Below, piece by piece: positions 1 through 11,566 of a stretch of 64,000 nt of DNA. The notes under the pieces are model-generated. The model was not told where the DNA came from. It was given only the letters and a program-made list of their open reading frames with translations, and made no database searches. Numbering within the stretch: the stretch's first letter is position 1; each line of letters begins with the position of its first letter. The position numbers and the translations under genes are program-made. The stretch is from Comamonas halotolerans (GTDB taxonomy: Bacteria > Pseudomonadota > Gammaproteobacteria > Burkholderiales > Burkholderiaceae_C), in assembly GCF_030162935.1 (NCBI RefSeq), contig NZ_JASAUZ010000012.1:186001-250000 (forward strand). The letters run 5' to 3'.

Positions 1-526
1 TGTCTCGCGCATTCCAGGCTAGAGCCTCCACCCCCAGGTTCTTGTAAAGGGGATTCAAGGACAACTGGGCATGGGGGGCTTCGTCAAGATGAATGACTTT
101 GGTGTCTTTCGCAATTTCAACCTGCCAAAGCGCATTGGTCTTCTCATCCACGATCATGAATTGATCGTGATGAAGATGAGTGATACCTTCCGTATCTTTG
201 CCTCCACGCACCCGGATGATGCGCAGCACCTCGCCATCGGTAGTCATCTCGACCACCCTCGACGGAGCATTGGCAATGCCAAAGAGCGTTTTGGATTCCG
301 GGTGAAACGTCAAGCCCGACAAGTTCTGACGAATTCCCTGCACTGCTTTGGCTTCCACAGTGACTTTGTAATCCCTCAAACCCAAAGCATCTGAAACCGG
401 TGCTTTTTGCTGCTGCAGCACATAGTAAACAAGTGCTGGAAGATAGAAAAAGACCAGCCACAAGCCAATCAACAGAGCTAGCAAAGCTAACAGGTATTTA
501 CAACGCTTTTTCCAGACAGAGTGCAT
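1..526 (-). CDS. SdiA-regulated (YjiK-like) membrane-anchored protein, partial
   Basis: The reading frame opens with ATG at 526 and runs off the left edge without a stop, so only about 175 N-terminal residues are visible. Residues 10-35 form a hydrophobic membrane segment (LLALLALLIGLWLVFFYLPA). The part after it resembles the SdiA-regulated/YjiK family, predicted beta-propellers found in the envelope: 'LSGLTFHPESKTLF' followed by 'GEVLRIIRVRG' and 'GITHLHHDQFMIVDE' are typical blade sequences. The gene lies 148 bp downstream of the giant ATPase gene on the same strand, with no clear terminator between them, so it could be co-transcribed with the stress operon. The family has no firmly established biochemical role. 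The assignment is moderately sure; the start is the only ATG near the hydrophobic segment. Confidence 0.7.
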   Translation of the reverse strand, partial: MHSVWKKRCKYLLALLALLIGLWLVFFYLPALVYYVLQQQKAPVSDALGLRDYKVTVEAKAVQGIRQNLSGLTFHPESKTLFGIANAPSRVVEMTTDGEVLRIIRVRGGKDTEGITHLHHDQFMIVDEKTNALWQVEIAKDTKVIHLDEAPHAQLSLNPLYKNLGVEALAWNARD

Positions 527-674
527 TTCGAGATTTTGCACTTAGCCGGACATCCCCATAGAAAAAATCCTCAAGCCAAGAGATGCTGCTACCAGTCATC
601 GTGCTTGAATTTTCATTCGCAATTGCGTCGAAACAGGCTGGCCGCTCCACACAATATTCCAATCAATCCAGCGT

Positions 675-3600
675 TCAAGACGCACTGTCCTGCATGCGGT
701 CAAAGGCCCTGTGTATCTCTTCGGAGCGCAGCGTCGGCTGCAAGCTGTCACGCTGTAGTTGTGCACGCTGACTGTCGATCTGCTCCTGCATGCGGGTGGC
801 CACCTGCATGAGCACCCGGTGCAGGCCCAACTGTTGTCTGCGGCTGTGCTCCAGGTGCTCGACCACCGGCTGCAGCGATCGGGACGCCAGCTGCTCCAGC
901 AATGCTGCCATGCGGTGGACCTGGGTATTCTCTGCGCCCTCATCAGTATCAGCGTGCTGATTCTGTGCAAGCACCTGCCAAACGCCCTGCAGAGACTGCT
1001 GCGTCGCGCTGTGCGCCTGCTGCAGTTGTTCCAGCAAAGCCTGCCAGCCCTCACGCTGTGTCAACTCCGCATCGCGCTGCTGCGATTGCTGCTGTCGGGC
1101 GTCTGACATGCCATGCGCCACCTCGCGCGTGACAGCAACCAAGTCCACCAGTTGCGACGCCACGCGCGTACCTGCATCAGCGTTGGCCCCGCCCATGGAC
1201 TTCTGGCGCAGAAACTCGGCCTTGATGTCGTTCCAGCGCGCAGCATCTTCCGCATTCAAGGTGCCGCGTAATTCGCGCAGCTTGAGCAGGTTTTCCTCTG
1301 CGCCCGTGGTCAGCATCTGCGCCTCGCCCTGGTAGTGGTCGTCCAGCATCTGCTGCATCTCGGCGTCGTTCATCACCGGTGTGATCTTCTCCGCGAGCTT
1401 GCTCATGTTGCGATAGCTGCCCTGCAACTTGAACGGCGGTTCTTCGCGATATTGGTCGTCCTGCGCAGCGCTGTGAATGTACTGCTGATTCACGCGAAAC
1501 ACAGTCTCACGTACCTTGAGCATGCGCTTGAGCGTCGCATCAATCTCGCGCAGCTCTGCCGACGAATACTCATAGCTCAGTGCATTGCTGGAAATTTCCT
1601 TTCCCTGCGCCTTTTCGATCAACAGATAGAGATCGTCCAGACTGCGCGTAGCCATGGGCGCCAGCACCGCGTTGGAGGTCATGCTGTTCTCGATATAGCT
1701 GAGCTTGAACACTTCTTCCATGCCACCCAGCACGTCGCCCAGGTTGTAGATGTCCGCACGGTTGGCCAGCATGTCGGGGATCTTGAAGACCTCACCCGAC
1801 TCGGTGTACGGGTTGCCCGACATGACGATGCAAAACCGCTTGCCGCGCAGATCGTGCGTCTTGGTCTTGCCGCGCCACACGCCCTCGATACGGCGCGTGC
1901 CGTCCGACAGCGAGATGAACTTCTGCAGAAACTCGGGATGCGTGTGCTGTATGTCGTCGATGTACAGCATCACGTTGTTGGCCATCTCCAACGCCAGATT
2001 GAGCTTTTCCAGTTCCTTGGCTGCTGTTGCATCGGGTGCCTGCGCCGGATCGAGCGAGCGCACAGAATGCCCCAGCGCCGGTCCGTTGATCTTCATGAAG
2101 ATCAGGCCCAGTCGGCTCGCCACATATTCCATCAGCGTGGTCTTGCCGTAGCCCGGTGGCGAGATCATCATGAGCAAGCCCATCTGGTCGGTACGCTTGG
2201 TCTCTCCCACAGCACCGATCTGCTTGGCCAGGTTGTCGCCGATCACCGGCAGATAACTCTTGTTGATGAGCTTGTTGCGCACAAACGAGGTGAGCGGGCG
2301 CGCCTTGAATTCCTCCACGCGGATGCGCTCGCGGTAGTCCTTGAGCACCTGCTGACGCAGTTGCTGATAGCGTTCAAACTGCGGTACGAAGTGGCGAAAG
2401 TGATGAACCGCGCGCATGCCCAGGTCATCGATCTGCAGCACCATGCGCCCGTTGCCGATGCGCGCATGCTGACCCAGCAAACCCTGCACCTCGCTGCGCA
2501 GATCCACATTGCTCACCACACTCGGCAGGTGGCTCGCACAGGTCAACCACGAGGCAGCCTCGCCTGCATAGGCCCACCATGCATCACCATCGGCAGACTT
2601 CAGCGCCCGACACGCCGTCTGCACCCAATGCAACGCACTGCGCCAGCGCTCGGCCAGCGGCGCGATCTGGTTGCGATGTTCACGGTCTTCGCCCCGCCAG
2701 TAGTCCAGCATTTCATCCCAGCGCTGCGGGTTCTGCAGATCGCTGTTCAACGCCGTTTGCAGTGCCGCCACCGCACTCTGGCTGTAGCTTGAGAAGTGAA
2801 AACGTACCGCCTTTACGGCCAGCTCCGCCTGCAGATAATTCGCCGCTGAGCGGATCAATCCGTCAATGTCGCCATGCGCCGACAAGGCCGTGAAATCATC
2901 AAGCAGGCCACGGTCTTTGACAAACACACGCAACACGCCGCCGATGTCCGCCTGAAGCGCATGCATTTCCGCCTCACTCGCAAACAACTGCTGCATGCAT
3001 TGCGCATGCTGCGCGCGGCGCGGCCACTGGGCAATATCAGCGGCCAGCTGCGGCTGCTGAATGTGCTCATGCTCGCGCCAGAACAGCACCGCCAAGGCCC
3101 GCGCGTCGGGTCCGAAACGCAGCACGCCTGCCGCATCACGCAGTGGCAGCAGAGCCTGCAGAATCAGGGCAGCATCATGGTCGTGAATGCCGCGCTCGTA
3201 GCCTTCGCGATAACGCGGCGCTGCAAACTCGCGCACCGCCAGGGTCAATGCCGTGCCATCGAGAAGCAATTGCGCCAGGCGTTGCTCATTCCAGCCATCG
3301 GTGCGATTGCGCGCCGCCAGCACCACGTTCAGCGCCAGATACTCGCCGCGATACAGCTCGGCGGATTCGGCCAACGTAGACACGTCCCAATAAGCCTGCA
3401 GATTCGCCAGCTCTGCGTTGTCGACCGCTTCGAAATACTCCGTGCCCACCAGATGCAGAAACAGCTCGCCATTGCGTGGCAGCAGCGTCAGCTCCAGATC
3501 CTGGTTGCCCACGCTGAAGCGGTGCCGCCCCAGCTTGATGACGTTGCCGCCACCTTCATAGAGATCGGAGCGATCCTGCAGCGAACGGAACGCCTGATCG

Positions 3601-6128
3601 CGCAGCGACTTCACACGTGTGTCGATATCGTCGGCCTTCACCGCATCGAACAGCTCGTTGCGCAGCCGCGCGCCCAGCTCCTTGAGTTTGGCGATCAGCG
3701 TATCGCCCGCAAAGAATGCATGCAGCGCCTCGCTGGACGCCAGCTTGTCGGTGCGCTTGGGCAGGCCCTGGATGATGCGCAGCGCCGCATCATGCACCCC
3801 CTGCGCGCGGCGCTGGCGCTCGTCCTGCAGCGACTGTCGCCGCGATTCAAACGTCTCCAGCAGCTCCTCGCGCTTGGCAACGATGTCGTTCAGAAACTGC
3901 TCGTGTTCGCCAAACTGGCCCTCGATTTCTTCGAGCTGCACCAGCAATCGCGCAAGCTGTTCATCGCACTTCTCGGTCGTCTGCGCCAGACCCAGCGCAT
4001 TGACAATGCTTTGCGAGAACAGCGCCAGTTGTGACGCAAACTGCGCCACCTGCTCCGAGCTGCCCAGGCTGCTGCGGCGCTGCTCGGCGCGTGCTCGCAC
4101 CTGGTTCAGGCGCGAGTAGATGGCCGAGATGCGGTCCACCACCTGCGTGCGCTGTGTGGCGTCGTCGATCTTGAGGCCGGTCATCAGCTCGGACAGCATG
4201 TCCAGCGCCGCCGAGATGCGCGTCATCTCCGCCAGCGGCTCACGCAGTTGCACCACGGTGGCCGCCGCCTGTGCCTGCTGATCGAGCTTGTGCAACTCAT
4301 CCACATAGGGCTGCAGCGCCGCATCGGTGGCAATGAAGGCGGCCGTGCGCTGCGACACCTCACCCTGCACCTCGCCCACCGCTGCAGCCATCGTGTCGAT
4401 GGCCTCTGTATCCACATAGCGCAACTCGCGCGTGGACATCAAGTGCCCGCGCAACTTCGCCAGTTCTTCCAGCGCACTCACGTGCTCGTCCACCGTCGTC
4501 CAGTCGCTGGTGCGCAAGCGCTTGAGCAGATTGCCATGCTGCGAGGACACATCATTCATCGCGCGCGACGAAGCCTGGCGGATGCTCTCGACCTTCTCGT
4601 ACTCGTCGATCACCGCATCGCCCGTGGCGACTATGCCATGCAGCACCTCGTTCATCGCGGCAAGCTGCGGCGTGTTGATCCACTGGTGGCGCTCGAACAG
4701 CAAGCGCGTGGTGTCGATCAGCCGTTCATAACGCGCCAACGACACCTCGGGCGCAGCGATTTCCTTGCGCACGCTGTACACATCGGAGATGCCGCTGACC
4801 AGTTCCGCATTGCCGATGTGGCCCAGAAAGCTGTCCTTCTGCGGCTGGCGCGCGGCAAAGTCTTCCGACGCAAATGGCGTGCGCCAGATCTGCATGGGAT
4901 GCACGCGCGTGGCCTCGTCGCCATCGGCGGCAAAAATCACGATGCGCCCGTCTTCCAGCCGCGCATAACCGTGGCAGACAATAGGCGGCTGCAGTGCGCG
5001 CTCGATCAGGTTGTACTTGAACAGCGCCATGCGCCCGCTGCCCGGCTCATAGAAGATGTAGAGCACATCCTCGCCGTTGGGCGAGCGGATGCTGCGGCGA
5101 TAACGCATGCCCTGCATGTTCTGCTCGAACGAGCGGTGCTCGCCGCTCTGCAGCACATAGCCACCGGGAAAAATGATGCCATGGTCATCAGGCAGCTGGA
5201 TGCATGCGCCCGCAATCGCATCCATGCGCAACACCTGACGCGACAGTGTGTTGTAGATGAGATAGCGCCACTGCTCTTCGCGATACGGCAGAATCTTCAG
5301 CAAAATCATGCTGCCGAGCTGCGCGTACTCGAACACCGCATCATCCAGCGATTGATTGGCTTCCTGCACAGGCTCGCTGTAGATACCAAGCCCGTCGTTG
5401 GTATTGTTCTCGACCTTGAGGGTGAGCGTGCCGCCAAGCGTCTCCACGAACACCTTGTCGAGGATGTTCATGTGCGGAAAGCGGCCCTGCACGATCTGAT
5501 CGCGCCCGCAGCGCTGCCACTCAAAGTCAAACGGCGCCGGGGGGTCGATGTCGCGTTCACCGCGGTTGTCGATGTACTTGACTTTCTTGCCATCCGGCGA
5601 GATCGACCAGCGAAACACGCGCACGTCGGTAATGCGCTCCCCGATCTGAAAGCTCGCCAGCAGCTTGCTGTCGCGCACCACCAGCTGCATCAGCCGCGTG
5701 TTCTTGTAGTAGGCGTACAGCTCCTGAAAATCCTGCACAAAGCTCTGGATGCCAAGGAAACTGTCCTTCAATTCGACCGGCACGACCTCGTAGCCGTGCT
5801 CGTTCTCCTCCAGGCGATACAGCGCGAACACATCTTCCACGCGCGTGGCCTGCTTGAGTCCCATGAAGACGTTGTAGCCGAAGAGCAGCAGGTCTCCCAC
5901 CTGGGTGATGTCGCGCCCCACGCAGTTGTTTTCGGTGCGCACGCGCATGCGGCCGATGACTTCCATCTGGCTTCGGCCAAACTCTTCGAGGCGTTCCTCG
6001 TTGAGCTGACGCACCAGGGTTTCCAGCGTCTGGCCTTGCGTTGCCAGACGCTTGGCCAGCACTTCATACGATCCACCGCTCGCAACGGCCTGGTCTACAA
6101 CGGAGGTGGGCTGTTCAGCTTGAGACAT
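675..6128 (-). CDS. Giant AAA+ ATPase ('DNA repair ATPase' family, DUF3686-type N-terminus)
   Basis: This 1,817-residue protein has one AAA+ module near its C-terminus: Walker A PPGYGKTT at about residue 1320, Walker B LYIDDIQ at about 1390 (Asp-Asp where Asp-Glu is usual), a sensor-1-like MSGNPYTESG, then NRADIYNLGD. The first 500 residues look beta-rich ('VGRDITQVGDLLLFGYNVF'), as in the DUF3686 family. They are followed by several hundred residues of charged, Gln-rich predicted coiled coil, and a second coiled coil closes the protein. The family is often labelled a DNA-repair ATPase, but I know of little experimental support. Its position directly downstream of flotillin, YqiJ, PspA and DUF2170 genes suggests a membrane-remodelling or stress role instead (inference). 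ATG 6128 is preferred over an upstream TTG at 6146. Confidence 0.85.
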   Translation of the reverse strand: MSQAEQPTSVVDQAVASGGSYEVLAKRLATQGQTLETLVRQLNEERLEEFGRSQMEVIGRMRVRTENNCVGRDITQVGDLLLFGYNVFMGLKQATRVEDVFALYRLEENEHGYEVVPVELKDSFLGIQSFVQDFQELYAYYKNTRLMQLVVRDSKLLASFQIGERITDVRVFRWSISPDGKKVKYIDNRGERDIDPPAPFDFEWQRCGRDQIVQGRFPHMNILDKVFVETLGGTLTLKVENNTNDGLGIYSEPVQEANQSLDDAVFEYAQLGSMILLKILPYREEQWRYLIYNTLSRQVLRMDAIAGACIQLPDDHGIIFPGGYVLQSGEHRSFEQNMQGMRYRRSIRSPNGEDVLYIFYEPGSGRMALFKYNLIERALQPPIVCHGYARLEDGRIVIFAADGDEATRVHPMQIWRTPFASEDFAARQPQKDSFLGHIGNAELVSGISDVYSVRKEIAAPEVSLARYERLIDTTRLLFERHQWINTPQLAAMNEVLHGIVATGDAVIDEYEKVESIRQASSRAMNDVSSQHGNLLKRLRTSDWTTVDEHVSALEELAKLRGHLMSTRELRYVDTEAIDTMAAAVGEVQGEVSQRTAAFIATDAALQPYVDELHKLDQQAQAAATVVQLREPLAEMTRISAALDMLSELMTGLKIDDATQRTQVVDRISAIYSRLNQVRARAEQRRSSLGSSEQVAQFASQLALFSQSIVNALGLAQTTEKCDEQLARLLVQLEEIEGQFGEHEQFLNDIVAKREELLETFESRRQSLQDERQRRAQGVHDAALRIIQGLPKRTDKLASSEALHAFFAGDTLIAKLKELGARLRNELFDAVKADDIDTRVKSLRDQAFRSLQDRSDLYEGGGNVIKLGRHRFSVGNQDLELTLLPRNGELFLHLVGTEYFEAVDNAELANLQAYWDVSTLAESAELYRGEYLALNVVLAARNRTDGWNEQRLAQLLLDGTALTLAVREFAAPRYREGYERGIHDHDAALILQALLPLRDAAGVLRFGPDARALAVLFWREHEHIQQPQLAADIAQWPRRAQHAQCMQQLFASEAEMHALQADIGGVLRVFVKDRGLLDDFTALSAHGDIDGLIRSAANYLQAELAVKAVRFHFSSYSQSAVAALQTALNSDLQNPQRWDEMLDYWRGEDREHRNQIAPLAERWRSALHWVQTACRALKSADGDAWWAYAGEAASWLTCASHLPSVVSNVDLRSEVQGLLGQHARIGNGRMVLQIDDLGMRAVHHFRHFVPQFERYQQLRQQVLKDYRERIRVEEFKARPLTSFVRNKLINKSYLPVIGDNLAKQIGAVGETKRTDQMGLLMMISPPGYGKTTLMEYVASRLGLIFMKINGPALGHSVRSLDPAQAPDATAAKELEKLNLALEMANNVMLYIDDIQHTHPEFLQKFISLSDGTRRIEGVWRGKTKTHDLRGKRFCIVMSGNPYTESGEVFKIPDMLANRADIYNLGDVLGGMEEVFKLSYIENSMTSNAVLAPMATRSLDDLYLLIEKAQGKEISSNALSYEYSSAELREIDATLKRMLKVRETVFRVNQQYIHSAAQDDQYREEPPFKLQGSYRNMSKLAEKITPVMNDAEMQQMLDDHYQGEAQMLTTGAEENLLKLRELRGTLNAEDAARWNDIKAEFLRQKSMGGANADAGTRVASQLVDLVAVTREVAHGMSDARQQQSQQRDAELTQREGWQALLEQLQQAHSATQQSLQGVWQVLAQNQHADTDEGAENTQVHRMAALLEQLASRSLQPVVEHLEHSRRQQLGLHRVLMQVATRMQEQIDSQRAQLQRDSLQPTLRSEEIHRAFDRMQDSAS

Positions 6129-6164
6129 AGCGCTCACAGACTTCAACGTGAATAGGAAGACTCA

Positions 6165-6193
6165 GCCCCTCTCCCGCAAGCAAGAGAAGGGGC
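6165..6193 (-). repeat. Intercistronic hairpin between the flotillin and ATPase genes
   Basis: GCCCC at 6165-6169 pairs with GGGGC at 6189-6193, with CTC (6171-6173) and GAG (6184-6186) extending the stem across a short bulge. No T-run follows in the direction of transcription, so it is not a canonical terminator. It may stabilise the upstream flotillin message or reduce expression of the very large downstream ATPase gene. The stem sequence resembles short GC-rich palindromes common between genes in Comamonadaceae. Confidence 0.5.
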
Positions 6194-6206
6194 AAGACGC
6201 ATGGCC

Positions 6207-8279
6207 TCAAGCCGATGGCGGCAAACTCTTCTGATCGTCGCCCGCACCGCCGCCCAGCAGCGAGGGCACACCACCCTTGCTATTCAGAAATTTATTGAGC
6301 AGCTCCTGCACGATCGGGCTCTTGCCCGACACGCCTTCAATCGCCTTCCCCACCGACAGCGCCTTGGCGAAGTTGTCGAAGAATGCGCCCTCGCCACCCA
6401 CGATGTCGATATTGGCCTTGCTGAGCGCAGACGACAGCACCTCAGCCTGCTCCTTCGCAACACTCTTGTTCGCGTCGATGGCCGCCAGCGCCTGCTCGAA
6501 GTTCTTCTCGAGCTGCATGCGGAACTCTTCGTGCGAACGTGCCTGATCGGACAGGCCGCCCAGTGCAGCGAATTTCTCCGTCAGGCCCTTGGCTTCAGCG
6601 AACAGTTTGTCGCGCAGCACGTCGGCCTCGGACTGACCCACCTCGCGTGTCACCAGCGCCTTGGTGTTGCCTACCTGCGCCTCGCCGCGTGCCTGTGCCA
6701 TCAGGCGCTCTTCAAGCACCCTCGCCTCGGCCAGACCCTGTTTCTCGTTGGCATCCGCCGTCGCCTCGATCACGCGCGCCTCGGCCATGCCCTTTTCCTG
6801 CTGCCCCTTGGCCTCGGCGATCAGGCGCTCGGCCACCACCTTTGCCTGTGCCAGGCCTTCCTTCTCGATGGCAGCCGCCGTCACCTCGCGCACCTTGGCA
6901 TCGGCCAGACCGGGCGCTGCACGCTCCACTTCAATGGCTTCGGCCAGCTTCTTCTTGGCCTCGGCAGTCTTGCCAGCAGCTTCCAGTTCAGCCTGTGCCA
7001 GCGTGGTCACTTCCACGGCCTTGTGGCGCGAGGCTGTCTCGTCGGCCTCCGCCTTCTTCACCTGACGCACCAGATCCTCTTGGGCAGCGGCCTCAGCGGT
7101 CAGCACGGTGACCTGTTTCATGCGCTCGGCCTCGGACACCACGCGCACTTCCTTGATGCGCTCTTCTTCCTGCGCCACCGTCTTCTCCACCGCCACGCGC
7201 TCGCGGATCACGTTGGCGATGTTGGCCTTCTCGACTTCAATCGCCTTCTCCTTCTCGATGCGCTGCAGCTCCACCTCGCGTTGCCGCGCAACAATCTCCA
7301 GCTCCTTGGCACGCGTGACTTTTTCCACTTCAATCACCACTGCGCGCTCGCGATTCTGCTGCGCCACCGCCACTTCGCGGGCCTTGTTCTCTTCACGGAT
7401 GTCGAGCTGCTCCTGCGTCTGTATACGGGCCTGCTCGGCTTTCAGGCGTTCCTCTTCCTGCACCTTCTGCGTCTCGGCCTGCTCGCGCGCCTGGATGGTC
7501 GCGATCTCGCGTTTCTGGCGGGCTTCCGCATCAGCCTGCTGGCGCGCCAACGCCAGCATGGCTTCCTTGGTTTCAACGTTTTTCTTGGTCACCGCCAGTT
7601 CGGCATTGCGCTCCAGTTCGTTGGTCACAATGTTCTGCTTGGCCGTCAGTTCGGTGATTTTCCGGATGCCCTCGGAGTCCAGGATATTGTTCGGATCCAA
7701 CGATGATTTGGGCGTCTGTTCCAGGTAATCGATGGCCACATCTTCAAGTACGTAACCATTCAGGTCGTTGCCAATCACATGAATGATCTGATCTCGGAAC
7801 TCCTGGCGGTTCTCGAACAGCTTCACGAAATCAATCTGCTTGCCGACGGTCTTGAGCGCCTCGGAAAACTTGGCGTTAAACAACTCGTTCACGGCCACCT
7901 TGTCAGAAGCACGGTCCACGCCAATTGACTTAGCCACCTTGAGCACATCTCCCACTGTCTCATTGACACGCAGGTAAAACGCCACGGTGATATCGGCGCG
8001 CATATTGTCCCGGCAGATCAGTCCCTCCTTGCCACGGCGATCAATCTCCAGTGTGATCAGAGAGATACGCATGAACTCCTTCTTGTGAATCACCGGCAGC
8101 ACCAGTCCCCCTGTGAATTTCACCTTGGGCTGAGAAGTAGTGTCATTGATGATCAAGGCCGTACCCTGGGGCACCTTGATGTAGAAAGCCTTTATCAGCG
8201 CAAACAGCCCGAGTATGAGAATGAAGACGGTGCCAAGGACCACGGCCGCCACGATGTACCACTCCATATTGCCTGTCAT
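6207..8279 (-). CDS. yqiK: Flotillin-family (YqiK-like) membrane scaffold protein
   Basis: The 690-residue product starts with an N-terminal membrane segment (YIVAAVVLGTVFILILGLFALI, about residues 6-28). An SPFH/band-7 domain follows (about 30-200; 'VPQGTALIINDTT', 'RISLITLEIDRRGKEGL'). After it comes a very long Ala/Glu/Lys-rich flotillin coiled coil with repeated 'AEAKG' and 'EARVLEERL' elements to about 560, and a C-terminal tail rich in Gly and Pro. Bacterial flotillins of this type organise membrane microdomains and partner with NfeD/YqiJ OB-fold proteins. The YqiJ-type gene is 32 bp upstream, as in the E. coli yqiJ-yqiK pair. A GGGAG ribosome site precedes ATG 8279. Confidence 0.9.
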   Translation of the reverse strand: MTGNMEWYIVAAVVLGTVFILILGLFALIKAFYIKVPQGTALIINDTTSQPKVKFTGGLVLPVIHKKEFMRISLITLEIDRRGKEGLICRDNMRADITVAFYLRVNETVGDVLKVAKSIGVDRASDKVAVNELFNAKFSEALKTVGKQIDFVKLFENRQEFRDQIIHVIGNDLNGYVLEDVAIDYLEQTPKSSLDPNNILDSEGIRKITELTAKQNIVTNELERNAELAVTKKNVETKEAMLALARQQADAEARQKREIATIQAREQAETQKVQEEERLKAEQARIQTQEQLDIREENKAREVAVAQQNRERAVVIEVEKVTRAKELEIVARQREVELQRIEKEKAIEVEKANIANVIRERVAVEKTVAQEEERIKEVRVVSEAERMKQVTVLTAEAAAQEDLVRQVKKAEADETASRHKAVEVTTLAQAELEAAGKTAEAKKKLAEAIEVERAAPGLADAKVREVTAAAIEKEGLAQAKVVAERLIAEAKGQQEKGMAEARVIEATADANEKQGLAEARVLEERLMAQARGEAQVGNTKALVTREVGQSEADVLRDKLFAEAKGLTEKFAALGGLSDQARSHEEFRMQLEKNFEQALAAIDANKSVAKEQAEVLSSALSKANIDIVGGEGAFFDNFAKALSVGKAIEGVSGKSPIVQELLNKFLNSKGGVPSLLGGGAGDDQKSLPPSA

Positions 8280-8311
8280 GCATTGCTCCCTGTCTGCTGG
8301 ATATCTGAAAA

Positions 8312-8998
8312 CTAAAAACCGTTCCTGTCCTGCCCCGCGCGCTCACTGCCATCGAATTCGGCCTTGCTGACCACGCGCCAAGCGTTCTGTTCCTGAAGGT
8401 GCTCTATCAACACAATCTCCGTGCCGCGCACCAGCTCGCGCTCTGGCGAGCGCATCTGCAGATTCAGGCCGCCGCCTCCGTCATCCACGCTGCCATAGCC
8501 CTGCTGTGCATTCACCACCGCGCTACGCACCAGCCCTGTCCGCCCCAGCAGAACCTTCTGTACTTCACCCGGTGCCAACTTGGTCAGCACGCTGCGCAAA
8601 GGTCGCAACACAGCAACGGTGCCCAGAAATCCGAGAACAACAGCTGCACAGGCCACCAAGGAGCCGGTCATGAAACTGAGCCAACCACCCCCTTGCTGCA
8701 TGGGCACCAGATGAGACATCACATAAGAGGCCAACCACGAAAGCAGCAACAACACTGTGATGATGACGGTCAAAGGAATACCGCCCAATCCAACCTTCAG
8801 CAGCAGCCCGGCCAACGCACTGGCCGAACTTTCAACGCCGTTAGCACTGTCGCTGCCATCAAAAAGCACCCAGTGGTCCAGCGCATCAATGTCCAGCAAT
8901 CCCAGCATGGCCACCATCCAATACAGCAGCATGAAAAGCAGCAGCGCCCCGAACAAGAATGTCGGGAAGCCGAATGCGTACTCCAAGAAAGCGCCCAT
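8312..8998 (-). CDS. yqiJ: YqiJ-family inner-membrane protein with C-terminal OB-fold-like domain
   Basis: The 228-residue protein has three or four predicted membrane segments: about residues 12-35 (FLFGALLLFMLLYWMVAML), 63-95 (LKVGLGGIPLTVIITVLLLLSW region) and 108-130. A soluble C-terminal portion (about 140-220) contains 'GRTGLVRSAVVNAQQGYGSV' and 'EIVLIEHLQEQNAWRVV', resembling the OB-fold of NfeD-like proteins. YqiJ proteins are partners of YqiK flotillins and are thought to help localise or assemble them. The gene sits between the pspA-like and flotillin genes in a minus-strand operon. No catalytic residues are expected. Family assignment rests on topology, length and neighbourhood. 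Confidence 0.8.
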   Translation of the reverse strand: MGAFLEYAFGFPTFLFGALLLFMLLYWMVAMLGLLDIDALDHWVLFDGSDSANGVESSASALAGLLLKVGLGGIPLTVIITVLLLLSWLASYVMSHLVPMQQGGGWLSFMTGSLVACAAVVLGFLGTVAVLRPLRSVLTKLAPGEVQKVLLGRTGLVRSAVVNAQQGYGSVDDGGGGLNLQMRSPERELVRGTEIVLIEHLQEQNAWRVVSKAEFDGSERAGQDRNGF

Positions 8999-9118
8999 GT
9001 GGTTTTCCTCCCGTACGTTGCTGTGTCGCCAGGCCTGCCTTCAGCGGCAGGCGCCGCGTCCTCTTGCTCTTGTTGCTTTAACGGTGCATGTCATGTGGTA
9101 GCAGCATGCAGGTCCAGA

Positions 9119-9826
9119 TCAGGCAGCCTTGCCAGAACCTGCGCGCTGCGCCTTCAAACGCTCCAGCACGGTCTTTGCATCGCTGGCCTGCGAGGCAATT
9201 CCTGCAGCTCGAAGTTTGGCGTCCAGCGCATCTTCTGCCCCCTCTTTTGCCAGTTCAGCAGCACTTTGCAGTCGCGCTCCATGCTCTGCCTGCTTCTGCT
9301 TGATGCGCTCCAGTGAATCCAATGCCGTCTGCACCCTTGACTGCGTGCCTGTGTACCGCCCCGCCACCGTTGCCTGCGCACGCTGCACGCTTTCAGTCGC
9401 TTTGACGGTGTCTGCCTGCTGCTTGAGCCTGCGAATGTTCGACTGTGCTGTCTGGATCGCGGCCCGCAACTGCTCCACGCTCTGGGTAAAGGCCTCGAGT
9501 TGCGTTTGCTCTTCATCGCGCTGCGCTTCCAGCAATGCCACCTTGCCTGCGACTTCCAAAGCCAGTGCCTCATCGCCTGTATCGAGCGCCTTGACCGCAT
9601 AGTCCTCGTATTCGATGAGCCTGGACTGGGTGGTCTGCAGCTTGTCAGCAGCGAGCTTTTGCTTGGCCATGATTTCGGCCAATGCTTCCCGGGACCTGCT
9701 CAAGTCACTGTCCGCGTCGCGAATTTCCTGATCAAGGATGCGCAACGCCTGGCTGTCAGTGACAGCTTCCCCGGCTTCGTGGGCCGCTCCGCGCAATGCT
9801 GTTACCAGCTTGTTCCATAGTGCCAT
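9119..9826 (-). CDS. pspA: PspA/IM30 (ESCRT-III-like) membrane-stress protein
   Basis: The 235-residue product is almost wholly helical coiled coil, beginning 'MALWNKLVTALRGAAHEAGE', the expected PspA start with an amphipathic N-terminal helix. The helical hairpin follows ('DADSDLSRSREALAEIMAKQ', then heptad-rich sequence to about residue 190). PspA proteins are bacterial ESCRT-III relatives that polymerise on damaged inner membrane. ATG 9826 is chosen because an AGGAG ribosome site precedes it and because PspA members start there; an upstream ATG at 9859 adds an unconserved 11 residues. The gene lies 48 bp after the DUF2170 gene. It is closer to the YjfJ-type PspA paralogues that accompany YjfI than to the pspABC operon type, because no pspB, pspC or pspF is near. 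Confidence 0.88.
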   Translation of the reverse strand: MALWNKLVTALRGAAHEAGEAVTDSQALRILDQEIRDADSDLSRSREALAEIMAKQKLAADKLQTTQSRLIEYEDYAVKALDTGDEALALEVAGKVALLEAQRDEEQTQLEAFTQSVEQLRAAIQTAQSNIRRLKQQADTVKATESVQRAQATVAGRYTGTQSRVQTALDSLERIKQKQAEHGARLQSAAELAKEGAEDALDAKLRAAGIASQASDAKTVLERLKAQRAGSGKAA

Positions 9827-9874
9827 GATGTTCTCCTGGAGCTGAGGGTTGTAGGGCAATGGTCGGGGTGCAGC

Positions 9875-10513
9875 TCACGCCTGCGCCAGCGACAGGTAGC
9901 TTTCCAGCGCTTCGGTAGCCTGGATTACGCTATCGGACAGCGTCAGAATTCCGCAGACGATGTCATCACAGTTGCTGGATGTCCTCAGGGCCGAGAACAT
10001 CACATAGCCTTCGCCCCCTTGCGCCAGAGGTTCGAGCGCCATGTTTGTGAAGGGGAATAGTTTTTGCAGCCGCAAAATCTGCTCATTCATCCCCGCACGA
10101 TCCTTGACCTGGTCGGCAGGCCACAAGAAAACCTCGATCACGAGCTGCTCGCCAGATAGCGCCAGGTGCACGGGCAAATCACCGAACTCCGGCAAAGTCA
10201 CAAGCACGCTGGCATCTGCGCCTTCAAGCACCTCCACATTCAGCTTGCCCTCGCGTGCGAGCAAGCTTTGCTGCAGATCTGCGGCCAAGCTGTGAATACT
10301 CGAGTACGCATGAGTTTCGTTCTCCATAGAGCCCTCCTTATGGTCGATCAGCAATGAAACCGGGAGCGCCTGATGGAGGCGCATCTGCTTTTCCAGCCGC
10401 TGCAGCAGCGGGCCGTGCTCGGGAAGAATCCAGACTTCCTTCTTCACCAGCCCTTGTTCACGCAGTCTTTGCCTGTGCAAGCGCTGGTAGTGGGCTGATG
10501 TTTTGTTTTCCAT
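9875..10513 (-). CDS. yjfI: DUF2170 (YjfI-like) protein with RHH-like N-terminus
   Basis: The 212-residue protein has two parts. Residues about 8-45 ('HYQRLHRQRLREQGLVKKEV', then 'WILPEHGPLLQRLEKQMR') resemble the ribbon-helix-helix antitoxin/MazE-like (DUF3018) pattern of an Arg-rich helix, G-L, a strand ending W-h-P, then a helix. Residues about 63-212 match the DUF2170/YjfI type ('SVLVTLPEFGDLPVHLALSG', 'LFPFTNMALEPLAQGGEGYV'). DUF2170 genes habitually precede PspA-family genes. This is the first gene of the minus-strand stress operon, and two tandem CACATGTAA repeats lie just upstream. A DNA-binding, possibly self-regulating role is inference. ATG 10513 was preferred to 10573 because the longer form begins with low-quality sequence over the repeats. 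Confidence 0.78.
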   Translation of the reverse strand: MENKTSAHYQRLHRQRLREQGLVKKEVWILPEHGPLLQRLEKQMRLHQALPVSLLIDHKEGSMENETHAYSSIHSLAADLQQSLLAREGKLNVEVLEGADASVLVTLPEFGDLPVHLALSGEQLVIEVFLWPADQVKDRAGMNEQILRLQKLFPFTNMALEPLAQGGEGYVMFSALRTSSNCDDIVCGILTLSDSVIQATEALESYLSLAQA

Positions 10514-10534
10514 GTCGCCCACCGTAGCAGGCAT

Positions 10535-10556
10535 CACATGTAAGTTGCACATGTAA
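10535..10556 (-). promoter_or_regulatory. Tandem CACATGTAA direct repeats upstream of the DUF2170 gene
   Basis: CACATGTAA occurs at 10535-10543 and again at 10548-10556, a 13-bp period. Each copy contains the palindrome ACATGT. The array lies 22-43 bp upstream of the DUF2170 start codon. Tandem short palindromes are the classical target layout of ribbon-helix-helix repressors, and the first gene encodes an RHH-like N-terminus. The role as an operator is inferred. Confidence 0.45.
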
Positions 10557-10630
10557 AACGCATTGATCCCCAAAAAACTCCGTTAACAATCATTTCCCGC
10601 GAACAACAGGAGAATCCAACGGCAGATGCA

Positions 10631-10666
10631 AAAAAACCACGACGAGCATCAAGCCCATCGTGGTTC
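10631..10666 (-). terminator. Rho-independent terminator of the PACE pump gene
   Basis: Read on the minus strand, AACCACGA pairs with TCGTGGTT (10658-10665 with 10635-10642) and is followed by a run of T. It lies about 60 bp beyond the stop of the efflux gene. Confidence 0.75.
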
Positions 10667-10724
10667 AGAAACCTACTCAGACTCCAGCTCGTAAAAGCTG
10701 CTTGCTGAGTTCTGTTGAAGCCTC

Positions 10725-11210
10725 CTACTGCTTCACAAGCAGCTGTGCCGAAGCCGGCAAGCCAAAAATGCGGTCAAAGCACCAGTTAAATACAAAGGTG
10801 TAGATCATGAAAAAGACCAGCAATCCGGCTTCCATCACCGTTGCCTGCCACAACGATATGTTGAACCACCAGGCCATGAGCGGAATCAGCATGGCGGCAA
10901 TGCCGCCCTCAAAGCCGATCGCATGCGCAATGCGGCGCCACACGGAGCGGCCCTTTTTGGTTTGGCGCAGCTCCCACCTCTCAAACATCCAGTTGAAGGT
11001 CAGATTCCAGCAAATGGCGATGGTGGAGGCAGCCACAGCCATGACGCCGGAAGAGCCCGCCCCCTGGCCCGTCGCCATAAACAGCACGCTGGACACAAGG
11101 ATGGCAATGAATTCATAAAGGCCGACAAACACCACACGGCGCCAGGGCCCTTGCAAGCCCGTAGGCTGCACTGTGGCCGCGACCGATGTGGCAGAAATGG
11201 TTTCAGACAT
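10725..11210 (-). CDS. PACE-family multidrug/biocide efflux transporter
   Basis: The 161-residue membrane protein has four predicted helices arranged as two repeats of the bacterial transmembrane pair domain. Helix 1 includes 'VVFVGLYEFIAILVSSVLF' with the Glu typical of AceI-like pumps. Helix 2 ends 'CWNLTFNWMFERWE', a signature of the family, and the second repeat ends 'MIYTFVFNWCFDRIFG'. PACE pumps export chlorhexidine, acriflavine or polyamine-like substrates by proton antiport in the inner membrane. The gene is divergent from a LysR-type regulator across 356 bp, the usual arrangement for PACE genes. Length matches the family. Substrate cannot be read from sequence. Confidence 0.88.
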   Translation of the reverse strand: MSETISATSVAATVQPTGLQGPWRRVVFVGLYEFIAILVSSVLFMATGQGAGSSGVMAVAASTIAICWNLTFNWMFERWELRQTKKGRSVWRRIAHAIGFEGGIAAMLIPLMAWWFNISLWQATVMEAGLLVFFMIYTFVFNWCFDRIFGLPASAQLLVKQ

Positions 11211-11566
11211 GAGAAAAGTGTAGGTGTGAACAATGACAGAAATCGGGCAACGCTTTCACCGCCCTCAGACAGTGCCGCACAAGCTGTTATGCCCTGCTCA
11301 ACAGATCAGGCCCAAGCGGCAGATCTGCATGTATTGATGCACGCCGGTGGCAGGCCCGGCTTCACAGCAGCGCACGACTGGTGTGCCCGGTTTCGGCCAA
11401 CACACGCCAGACTGTTATGTGCACAAAGGCTGGGCTGCTGCATAAAGAAGGCGCAGAAGTGCACGTATGCCATCGCGTACAGGGTTGCAAACATAGTAGG
11501 CATGATATGCAATAAAAATTGAACACAAAATCTAAGTTCTTTCAGATTTTCTGATAGGTTCACGCC
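11211..11566. promoter_or_regulatory. Divergent PACE/LysR intergenic region with LysR-type inverted repeats
   Basis: No gene is supported in this 356-bp gap. Close to the LysR start, AAAATCT (11527-11533) and AGATTTT (11544-11550) form an inverted repeat with a 10-bp spacer. A second palindrome, TCAGA-TTT-TCTGA, overlaps it at 11542-11554. These are plausible LysR operator half-sites for autoregulation and control of the divergent pump gene. Confidence 0.45.

What the first reader, a model, noticed from the sequence alone, without database searches (positions are those of the whole stretch)
675..10513. PspA-flotillin-YqiJ-DUF2170 operon carrying a giant AAA+ ATPase: a possible bacterial membrane-remodelling machine
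Five minus-strand genes in order encode an RHH-like/DUF2170 protein, a PspA/IM30 protein, YqiJ, a flotillin and an 1,817-residue AAA+ ATPase, with gaps of 32-120 bp. PspA is an established ESCRT-III relative, and eukaryotic ESCRT-III is disassembled by the AAA+ ATPase Vps4. The gene order suggests that this ATPase, usually labelled as DNA repair, acts on PspA or flotillin assemblies. The link is inferred from neighbourhood.
Basis: partly seen in the sequence, partly recalled or inferred. Interest (0 to 1): 0.75.

Follow-up and report, generated by a model that had tools for sequence, protein, structure and literature searches.

The report
Flotillin operon with giant AAA+ ATPase
A known type of bacterial membrane-stress operon pairs a very large ATP-driven motor protein with a membrane scaffold protein called flotillin, and related genomes suggest the motor works with flotillin rather than with the ESCRT-like protein PspA.

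Summary
The operon is real: five minus-strand genes (DUF2170, PspA, YqiJ-like, flotillin, 1,817-residue AAA+ ATPase) at 675-10513. The arrangement is already in print: Ravi et al. 2024 describe it with the ATPase, and the Pseudomonas aeruginosa bacABCDEF operon is its apparent experimental counterpart. The ATPase's near-constant partner is one flotillin subfamily: in 274- and 398-genome samples all ATPase genomes (7 and 8) carry it, and the one other carrier is cut at a contig end. On an ATPase tree flotillin changes once, PspA 6-8 times. In 11 of 12 genomes tested whose ATPase operon lacks PspA (mostly Xanthomonadales), no PspA gene was found at all. MIT and Vps4_C domains are missing; the AAA+ clade stays uncertain. 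Best reading: an AAA+ remodeller at a flotillin-YqiJ membrane platform, with PspA-DUF2170 a frequent accessory. Interaction and substrate are inferred.

The parts
675..6128 (-). Giant AAA+ ATPase, 1,817 aa: N-terminal beta-propeller (DUF3686), long coiled coil (includes DUF7902), helical domain about 929-1270, AAA+ module about 1279-1610 (Walker A SPPGYGKT 1323, Walker B LYIDDIQ 1388, sensor-1 GNP 1438, ANRAD 1455, SYRNM 1571), C-terminal coiled coil
   Evidence: Pfam; translation; motif positions; conservation over 110 aligned sequences; AlphaFold2 models; Foldseek. Names of the motifs are from general knowledge.
6207..8279 (-). Flotillin-type (SPFH) membrane scaffold, 690 aa, one N-terminal hydrophobic segment
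   Evidence: No Pfam hit on its own; 2 of 29 aligned relatives hit Band_7; the weak QmcA structure match, E 0.084, covers the coiled-coil part only; co-occurrence with the ATPase. Hydrophobic segment read from the sequence.
8312..8998 (-). YqiJ/NfeD-like membrane protein, 228 aa
   Evidence: No Pfam hit on its own; YqiJ_N in 5 of 25 and NfeD in 3 of 25 aligned relatives, weak
9119..9826 (-). PspA/IM30 protein, 235 aa, the only PspA_IM30 match in the window's genome
   Evidence: PF04012 E 2e-47; one match in G000
9875..10513 (-). DUF2170 (YjfI/BacA-type, CesT/Tir-like) protein
   Evidence: PF09938 E 9e-41; NCBIfam BacA 231 bits, below its cut-off of 300; DUF2170 solved structure 8q8o phmmer E 6e-26
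10634..10666 (-). Terminator-like stem-loop bounding the operon on its 5' side
   Evidence: 13 such sites found in 1-11400, 9.1 expected in shuffles; this one has the most pairs

Best explanation
The five genes encode a membrane-stress module built around a flotillin-YqiJ platform in the inner membrane. Flotillin and YqiJ (an NfeD-type partner) form an oligomeric SPFH scaffold. The giant ATPase docks on it from the cytoplasm, plausibly through its N-terminal beta-propeller and coiled coil, and uses its AAA+ ring to remodel the flotillin assembly or what it holds. PspA and its CesT/Tir-like partner DUF2170 are a frequent accessory that uses the same platform to reach damaged membrane, not the ATPase's obligatory substrate. 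Shown here: operon, partner statistics, domain layout, conserved ATPase motifs. Inferred: docking, ring formation, the substrate and the membrane role.
For: Within 6.5 kb upstream on the same strand, flotillin accompanies the ATPase in 78 of 79 genome-contig loci (1 cut off), 17 of 18 unnamed-genome loci and 11 of 11 plasmid-collection loci from Pseudomonadota, Deinococcota, Actinomycetota and Bacteroidota (4 of the 18 are the same loci as in the first set). The one locus without it, in G292, has a flotillin of the same kind beside YqiJ on another contig. In 274 class genomes the 7 ATPase genomes all have the close flotillin (E below 1e-200); the only other carrier, G164, ends at a contig end inside the flotillin gene. 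In 398 phylum genomes the same 8 have both, and the next flotillin is E 3.7e-69. Of these 13 distinct genomes, 7 gave no sequence to the search profile. Minimum changes on the ATPase tree: flotillin 1, YqiJ 2, PspA and DUF2170 8 each as scored, 6 each with the two far-off copies counted as present. No PspA gene found in 11 of 12 genomes with a PspA-less operon, control 11 of 11. The two more distant flotillin loci opened, L153 and L154, carry a PspA-like gene (E about 1e-9 to 3e-9 with my profile) and flotillin without the ATPase, so flotillin links both. Walker A, Walker B, sensor 1 and sensor 2 positions are nearly invariant in 110 aligned sequences.
Against: No interaction is shown. Co-occurrence counts are not corrected for phylogeny; the tree has long-branch warnings. 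The flotillin profile included sequences of 6 of the 13 ATPase genomes, and not the distant flotillins, so part of the gap is by construction. Completeness of the 12 genomes tested for PspA was not given. [quoted passage not shown] aeruginosa gave no pronounced phenotype (PMC13086221, passages), whereas the PspA-like bacB mutant is biofilm-defective (PMC2587700, abstract and passages).
Confidence: 0.5

Rival explanations
1. Vps4-like role: the ATPase disassembles PspA (ESCRT-III-like) polymers.
For: The P-loop stretch also matches many p97/Cdc48 chains, which are classical AAA proteins like Vps4.
Against: No PspA gene found in 11 of 12 genomes with a PspA-less operon; PspA-flotillin loci without the ATPase; no MIT or Vps4_C domain; strands before sensor 1 in the model at moderate confidence; no Vps4 among the 50 Foldseek rows shown of 289.
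Confidence: 0.15
2. Narrower version of the platform model: the ATPase is a protein unfoldase or disaggregase for clients trapped at the flotillin platform, without a protease, a functional parallel to FtsH with HflK/C, and does not act on flotillin itself.
For: FloA-NfeD of Staphylococcus aureus holds unfolded proteins (PMC11222466, passages); FtsH-HflK/C is an SPFH-AAA+ pair (PMC13220708, abstract); ClpB/Skd3/ClpA among weak structural neighbours.
Against: No peptidase or known chaperone domain found; Foldseek matches are weak, best E 0.0039.
Confidence: 0.2
3. DNA repair ATPase, as databases label it.
For: Pfam description of PF12458; similarity to RuvB, which is the best sequence and Foldseek match.
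Against: The RuvB similarity in sequence is confined to about 45 residues around the P-loop; no DNA-binding or nuclease domain was matched; operon partners are membrane proteins.
Confidence: 0.04
4. Mobile accessory stress or resistance module in which the ATPase serves TelA or the phospholipase-D-like protein.
For: Patchy within the genus, 8 of 37 genomes; on plasmids such as pQBR103; TelA within 2.5 kb downstream in 47 of 79 loci and PLD in 15 of 79 (2 undetermined each).
Against: TelA and P235 are in 0 of 16 determinable unnamed-genome loci, P235 in 0 and TelA in 2 of 11 plasmid-collection loci, and neither was found at the window's locus; no PADLOC match for ATPase, flotillin, YqiJ, DUF2170, P235 or TelA.
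Confidence: 0.08

Closest known systems
CesT/Tir-PspA + band-7/flotillin + YqiJ + AAA+ ATPase operon class (Ravi et al. 2024, PMC11237479; passages, section 19)
   Same: Same gene set, same ATPase description (AAA+ fused to coiled coil and beta-propeller), optional phospholipase D, shorter flotillin-YqiJ-ATPase versions
   Different: That paper suggests the shorter operons may work with PspA elsewhere; here no PspA was found in 11 of 12 genomes tested. TelA and the P235 protein are not mentioned in section 19; its figures and supplements were not seen.
Pseudomonas aeruginosa bacABCDEF operon (PMC10948618 and PMC2587700, passages)
   Same: DUF2170 (bacA), PspA (bacB), short NfeD (bacC) and SPFH protein PaFlo3 (bacD; PMC13086221, passages), then bacE and bacF; PA3728 is listed as ATPase in PMC8190622 (passage). 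RT-PCR bridges every intergenic region; in the sessile bacA mutant the other five proteins rise 6.1- to 13.5-fold
   Different: That bacE is PA3728 and a DUF3686 ATPase is inferred from gene order, not checked by sequence here. A sigma-54 site is proposed there; none was found in the 300 bp upstream of the window's operon.
HflK/C-FtsH (SPFH assembly with AAA+ protease; PMC13220708, abstract)
   Same: SPFH scaffold paired with a dedicated AAA+ motor
   Different: No peptidase domain found here; the SPFH protein is flotillin-type
Vps4-ESCRT-III
   Same: AAA+ motor encoded beside an ESCRT-III relative
   Different: No MIT or Vps4_C domain; PspA dispensable

Membership tests
CesT/Tir-PspA-flotillin-YqiJ-ATPase operon (Ravi class / bac operon) | DUF2170/CesT gene, PspA, YqiJ-type, flotillin, beta-propeller-coiled-coil-AAA+ ATPase in one operon | tested here: met
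   (YqiJ and flotillin only through relatives; co-transcription not tested)
bac operon | sigma-54 promoter before the first gene | tested here: not met
   No TGGCAC-N5-TTGCW match with up to 2 mismatches between 10514 and 10818; 70 in the window, about 76 expected by chance
Vps4 | N-terminal MIT domain and C-terminal Vps4_C domain | tested here: not met
   No such Pfam match at E 0.1; N-terminus folds as strand-rich domain plus coiled coil
Vps4 | Classical AAA clade, no hairpin between Walker B helix and sensor 1 (clade rule recalled) | tested here: inconclusive
   Model has strands 564-569 and 572-577 between Walker B and sensor 1 at pLDDT about 65-75, and Foldseek rows are RuvB, NorQ, CbbQ, Skd3, Clp, MCM; but Pfam AAA and AAA_5 match 53 of 53 members almost equally, and p97/Cdc48-type chains fill most of the 55 sequence matches behind RuvB
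Vps4 | Disassembles an ESCRT-III polymer with ATP | not testable with these tools
   needs biochemistry
AAA+ ATPase, catalytically competent | Walker A, Walker B, sensor residues, arginine finger | tested here: met
   SPPGYGKT, LYIDDIQ, GNPYT, ANRAD, SYRNM conserved over 110 aligned sequences; Walker B is DD rather than DE; activity itself not tested
SPFH/flotillin | Band_7/SPFH domain | tested here: inconclusive
   Window protein itself no hit; 2 of 29 relatives hit
PspA/IM30 | PspA_IM30 domain over the whole protein | tested here: met
   PF04012 E 2e-47, positions 2-218 of 220
HflK/C-FtsH type pair | AAA+ partner with a peptidase domain | tested here: not met
   No peptidase family among the Pfam matches
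DNA repair ATPase | Any DNA-binding or repair domain | tested here: not met
   Only P-loop-region similarity to RuvB, below the RuvB cut-offs

The most novel reading that the evidence does not exclude
The ATPase and its dedicated flotillin subfamily are a second SPFH-AAA+ machine beside HflK/C-FtsH, spread over at least four bacterial phyla and by plasmids: a protease-free, propeller-bearing motor that actively rebuilds a bacterial flotillin microdomain, with PspA, TelA and phospholipase-D-like proteins as interchangeable add-ons. This would add an ATP-driven step to flotillin platforms, so far described in S. aureus as ATP-independent.
Probability: 0.35. Interest if true: 0.75.

Novelty: new member of a known kind. 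Interest (0 to 1): 0.42.

Why it matters
If the motor acts with flotillin, it gives a genetic handle on what drives bacterial membrane microdomains, which are described as ATP-independent in S. aureus (PMC11222466, passages). It also argues against reading every PspA-AAA+ neighbourhood as a bacterial ESCRT-Vps4 system, and against the 'DNA repair' label carried by this family in databases.

Tried and rejected
Vps4 membership was tested: the MIT and Vps4_C features were not met, the clade test stayed inconclusive. A sigma-54 promoter like that proposed for bacA was sought and not found. PADLOC gave no match for ATPase, flotillin, YqiJ, DUF2170, P235 or TelA; weak hits were for the window's PspA (LmuB, JetC models) and for the PLD protein of another genome (DrmC and others). 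Profile comparison of P235 with TelA gave probability 33.5% (E 0.00044 for that single comparison), P235 with PspA 0.8% and TelA with PspA 0.2%, so replacement of PspA by TelA is not argued from homology; TelA occurs in 32 of 35 PspA-less and 13 of 39 PspA-bearing loci. Naming the 929-1270 helical domain failed: the Foldseek rows shown name AAA+ proteins. Solved-structure sequence searches gave only weak hits for flotillin, YqiJ and the AAA+ region. Paper searches: PspA/ESCRT-III/flotillin/AAA+/DUF2170, 30 papers with 3 terms, 20 listed; DUF3686, 0 papers; PA3728/PA3729/PA3731, 23 papers, 20 listed; YqiK/YqiJ/flotillin, 13 papers; 'DNA repair ATPase' with flotillin, 0 papers; TelA/flotillin/toxic anion resistance, 113 papers, none of the 20 listed looked relevant by title; SPFH/AAA+/cage/bacterial flotillin/NfeD, 26 papers, 20 listed.

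Limits of counts: PspA at L039 and on pQBR103 (L119) lies more than 6.5 kb from the ATPase and was scored absent; with both set present the PspA changes fall from 8 to 6. Four of 18 unnamed-genome loci have the same ATPase as genome-contig loci. Of 94 confirmed relatives the tool kept 80, giving 79 loci, close relatives by design. Of 12 plasmid-collection hits 11 were fetched; H2, near-identical to H1 in the table, was left out. Whole-genome PspA absence was tested for 12 of the 35 loci scored without PspA. One of the 12 (L057) is titled Bacillus subtilis; I count it with the rest because its operon is Stenotrophomonas-like and no PspA was found, whereas the B. subtilis control has one. L122 was not searched (over 8 million bases).
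Full report
Observation. The ATPase runs 675-6128 (1,817 aa). Gaps are 48, 120, 32 and 78 bp from the first gene on. A terminator-like stem at 10666-10634(-) lies between the upstream PACE-efflux gene and the operon. The host looks like a Comamonadaceae bacterium: the best ATPase relatives are an uncultured Comamonadaceae MAG (83%) and two Diaphorobacter species (85%). The PspA is the only one found in the genome.

Already in print. Ravi et al. 2024 (PMC11237479; [quoted passage not shown] In P. aeruginosa the bacABCDEF operon is the apparent experimental counterpart: RT-PCR products bridge every intergenic region, and in the sessile bacA mutant the other five proteins rise 6.1- to 13.5-fold (PMC10948618, passages). 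PaFlo3 and a short NfeD are the bacD and bacC products (PMC13086221, passages); PA3728 is listed as an ATPase (PMC8190622, passage). A pa3728 insertion mutant has been used as an unrelated growth control (PMC12599236, passages), so the gene is not essential there. That bacE is PA3728 and the DUF3686 ATPase was inferred, not checked by sequence.

Who is the ATPase's partner? Genes were scored within 6.5 kb upstream on the same strand. Of 79 genome-contig loci, flotillin is present in 78 and one contig is cut; YqiJ in 75 (3 undetermined, 1 absent); PspA and DUF2170 in 39 each (35 absent, 5 undetermined). Of 18 unnamed-genome loci: flotillin 17, YqiJ 17, PspA 11 (6 absent, 1 undetermined), DUF2170 12. 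Of 11 loci from the plasmid collection (Proteus, Pseudomonas pQBR103, two Deinococcus, Halomonas, Nonomuraea, two Streptomyces, Vibrio, Photobacterium, Hymenobacter): flotillin 11, YqiJ 10, PspA 1, DUF2170 0. L039 and pQBR103 have PspA and DUF2170 further off and were scored absent. The single locus without flotillin (L023, G292) has the same kind of flotillin beside YqiJ on another contig. On a FastTree of 63 dereplicated ATPases, minimum state changes were flotillin 1, YqiJ 2, TelA 5, PLD 6, PspA 8, DUF2170 8, P235 9; PspA and DUF2170 fall to 6 with the two far-off copies counted as present. The tree carries long-branch warnings.

Whole-genome profiles agree. In 274 class genomes PF12458 is found in 7. 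The close flotillin (E below 1e-200) is in the same 7, and in G164 at E 2e-180, where the contig ends inside the flotillin gene; 8 further genomes have matches of E 8.6e-64 or weaker. In 398 phylum genomes the ATPase is in 8 and the close flotillin in the same 8; 44 further genomes have matches of E 3.7e-69 or weaker. G000 and G199 are in both samples, so 13 distinct genomes. The flotillin profile held sequences of 6 of these genomes and none of the distant flotillins, so 7 are independent of it and the size of the gap is partly by construction. These counts are not corrected for phylogeny.

PspA. Of the 35 genome-contig loci scored without PspA, the genomes of 12 were searched. In 11 there is no PspA_IM30 match at E 0.001; the twelfth, Pseudomarimonas, has two weak ones. 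By record title 11 of the 12 are Xanthomonadales (Stenotrophomonas, Luteimonas, Xanthomonas, Pseudoxanthomonas, Pseudomarimonas, a Lysobacteraceae) and one, L057, is titled Bacillus subtilis but looks mislabelled. Their completeness was not given; one, S. maltophilia D457, is titled a complete sequence. The model is sensitive enough: it rings in 11 of 11 genomes whose operons carry even very divergent PspA, worst E 9.2e-10. DUF2170 is in 7 of 7 ATPase genomes of the class sample but in only 12 of 267 others. So the PspA-DUF2170 link is real and frequent, but the ATPase can be kept without PspA. In the two more distant flotillin loci opened (L153, L154), a PspA-like gene (E 2.5e-9 and 1.1e-9 with my profile) and flotillin occur together without an ATPase. 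Flotillin therefore connects both. Among 34 loci with all five genes and ATPase identity under 62%, median identity to the window is 65% for flotillin, 58% for the ATPase, 49% for PspA, 38% for YqiJ and DUF2170.

The ATPase. Pfam finds DUF3686, DUF7902 and AAA_5/AAA, with no MIT, Vps4_C or peptidase domain. AlphaFold2 of residues 1-700 (mean pLDDT 85) gives a strand-rich domain and long helices; Foldseek's best rows are proteins that I recall as beta-propellers (Elp1, Sec12, clathrin heavy chain, Ski8), E from 2.5e-7 but TM-scores of 0.2 or less to the query, agreeing with Ravi et al. Residues 850-1817 (mean pLDDT 77) give a confident helical domain, an AAA+ module and a C-terminal coiled coil. 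Two strands sit between the Walker B helix and the sensor-1 strand, as in the pre-sensor-1-hairpin superclade (clade rule recalled), at moderate confidence. Of 289 Foldseek matches the 50 shown include RuvB, NorQ, CbbQ, Skd3, Clp and MCM proteins and no Vps4; the best E is only 0.0039. Against this, the sequence search lists RuvB first but then mostly p97/Cdc48-type classical AAA chains over a P-loop stretch, and Pfam's classical AAA and AAA_5 models match 53 of 53 relatives almost equally. The clade is therefore open. Walker A, Walker B, sensor 1, ANRAD and SYRNM are nearly invariant in 110 aligned sequences, window included and sets overlapping, so it should be an active ATPase.

Operon extras. 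Downstream of the ATPase, within 2.5 kb, TelA occurs in 47 of 79 genome-contig loci, an unnamed protein of about 235 aa (P235) in 39, a phospholipase-D-like protein in 15 (2 undetermined each; identities). TelA accompanies 32 of 35 PspA-less and 13 of 39 PspA-bearing loci; by record titles these are largely Xanthomonadales, so phylogeny confounds this. Two Vibrionaceae loci have PLD and TelA. None of the three was found in the 19 kb around the window's operon (L117).

Mechanism. S. aureus FloA-NfeD holds unfolded proteins without ATP (PMC11222466, passages), and HflK/C works with the AAA+ protease FtsH (PMC13220708, abstract). The most economical reading is that this ATPase is the motor of a flotillin-YqiJ platform, acting on the scaffold or its clients, with PspA-DUF2170 recruited to the same platform. 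Contact, substrate and output are all inferred.

Verdict.

Noticed in passing
L060, L045, L048 and others, directly after the ATPase: In many Xanthomonadales loci the ATPase is followed by an unnamed protein of about 235 aa without a significant Pfam match and by a TelA (toxic anion resistance) protein, apparently in the same operon.
   Followed up: partly
L119 4028-17232 (pQBR103): A Pseudomonas plasmid joins the yjfI-pspA-rhomboid-DUF2491-DUF350-DUF1190-glutathionylspermidine synthase operon with YqiJ-flotillin-ATPase in one stretch.
   Followed up: partly
G000-G036: The ATPase is patchy within the window's genus: 8 of 37 genomes carry it, and it occurs on several plasmids, which suggests horizontal transfer.
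   Followed up: no
L027 (G199), L044, L065, L105: Relatives with broken ATPase (L027) or broken flotillin (L044, L065, L105) reading frames in otherwise similar operons, or assembly errors.
   Followed up: no
L057: Record titled Bacillus subtilis SK7B5 carries a Stenotrophomonas-like operon (YqiJ, flotillin, ATPase, TelA), and its genome has no PspA match; probably a mislabelled or contaminated assembly.
   Followed up: partly
L118, L122: Two 'plasmid' records (Proteus mirabilis 4.1 Mb, Nonomuraea gerenzanensis 11.9 Mb) are chromosome-sized.
   Followed up: no
window 10725-11210(-): PACE-family efflux transporter upstream of the operon, separated from it by a strong terminator-like stem.
   Followed up: partly
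window 2-541(-): SdiA-regulated family protein downstream of the ATPase on the same strand, gap 133 bp; whether it is co-transcribed was not examined.
   Followed up: no
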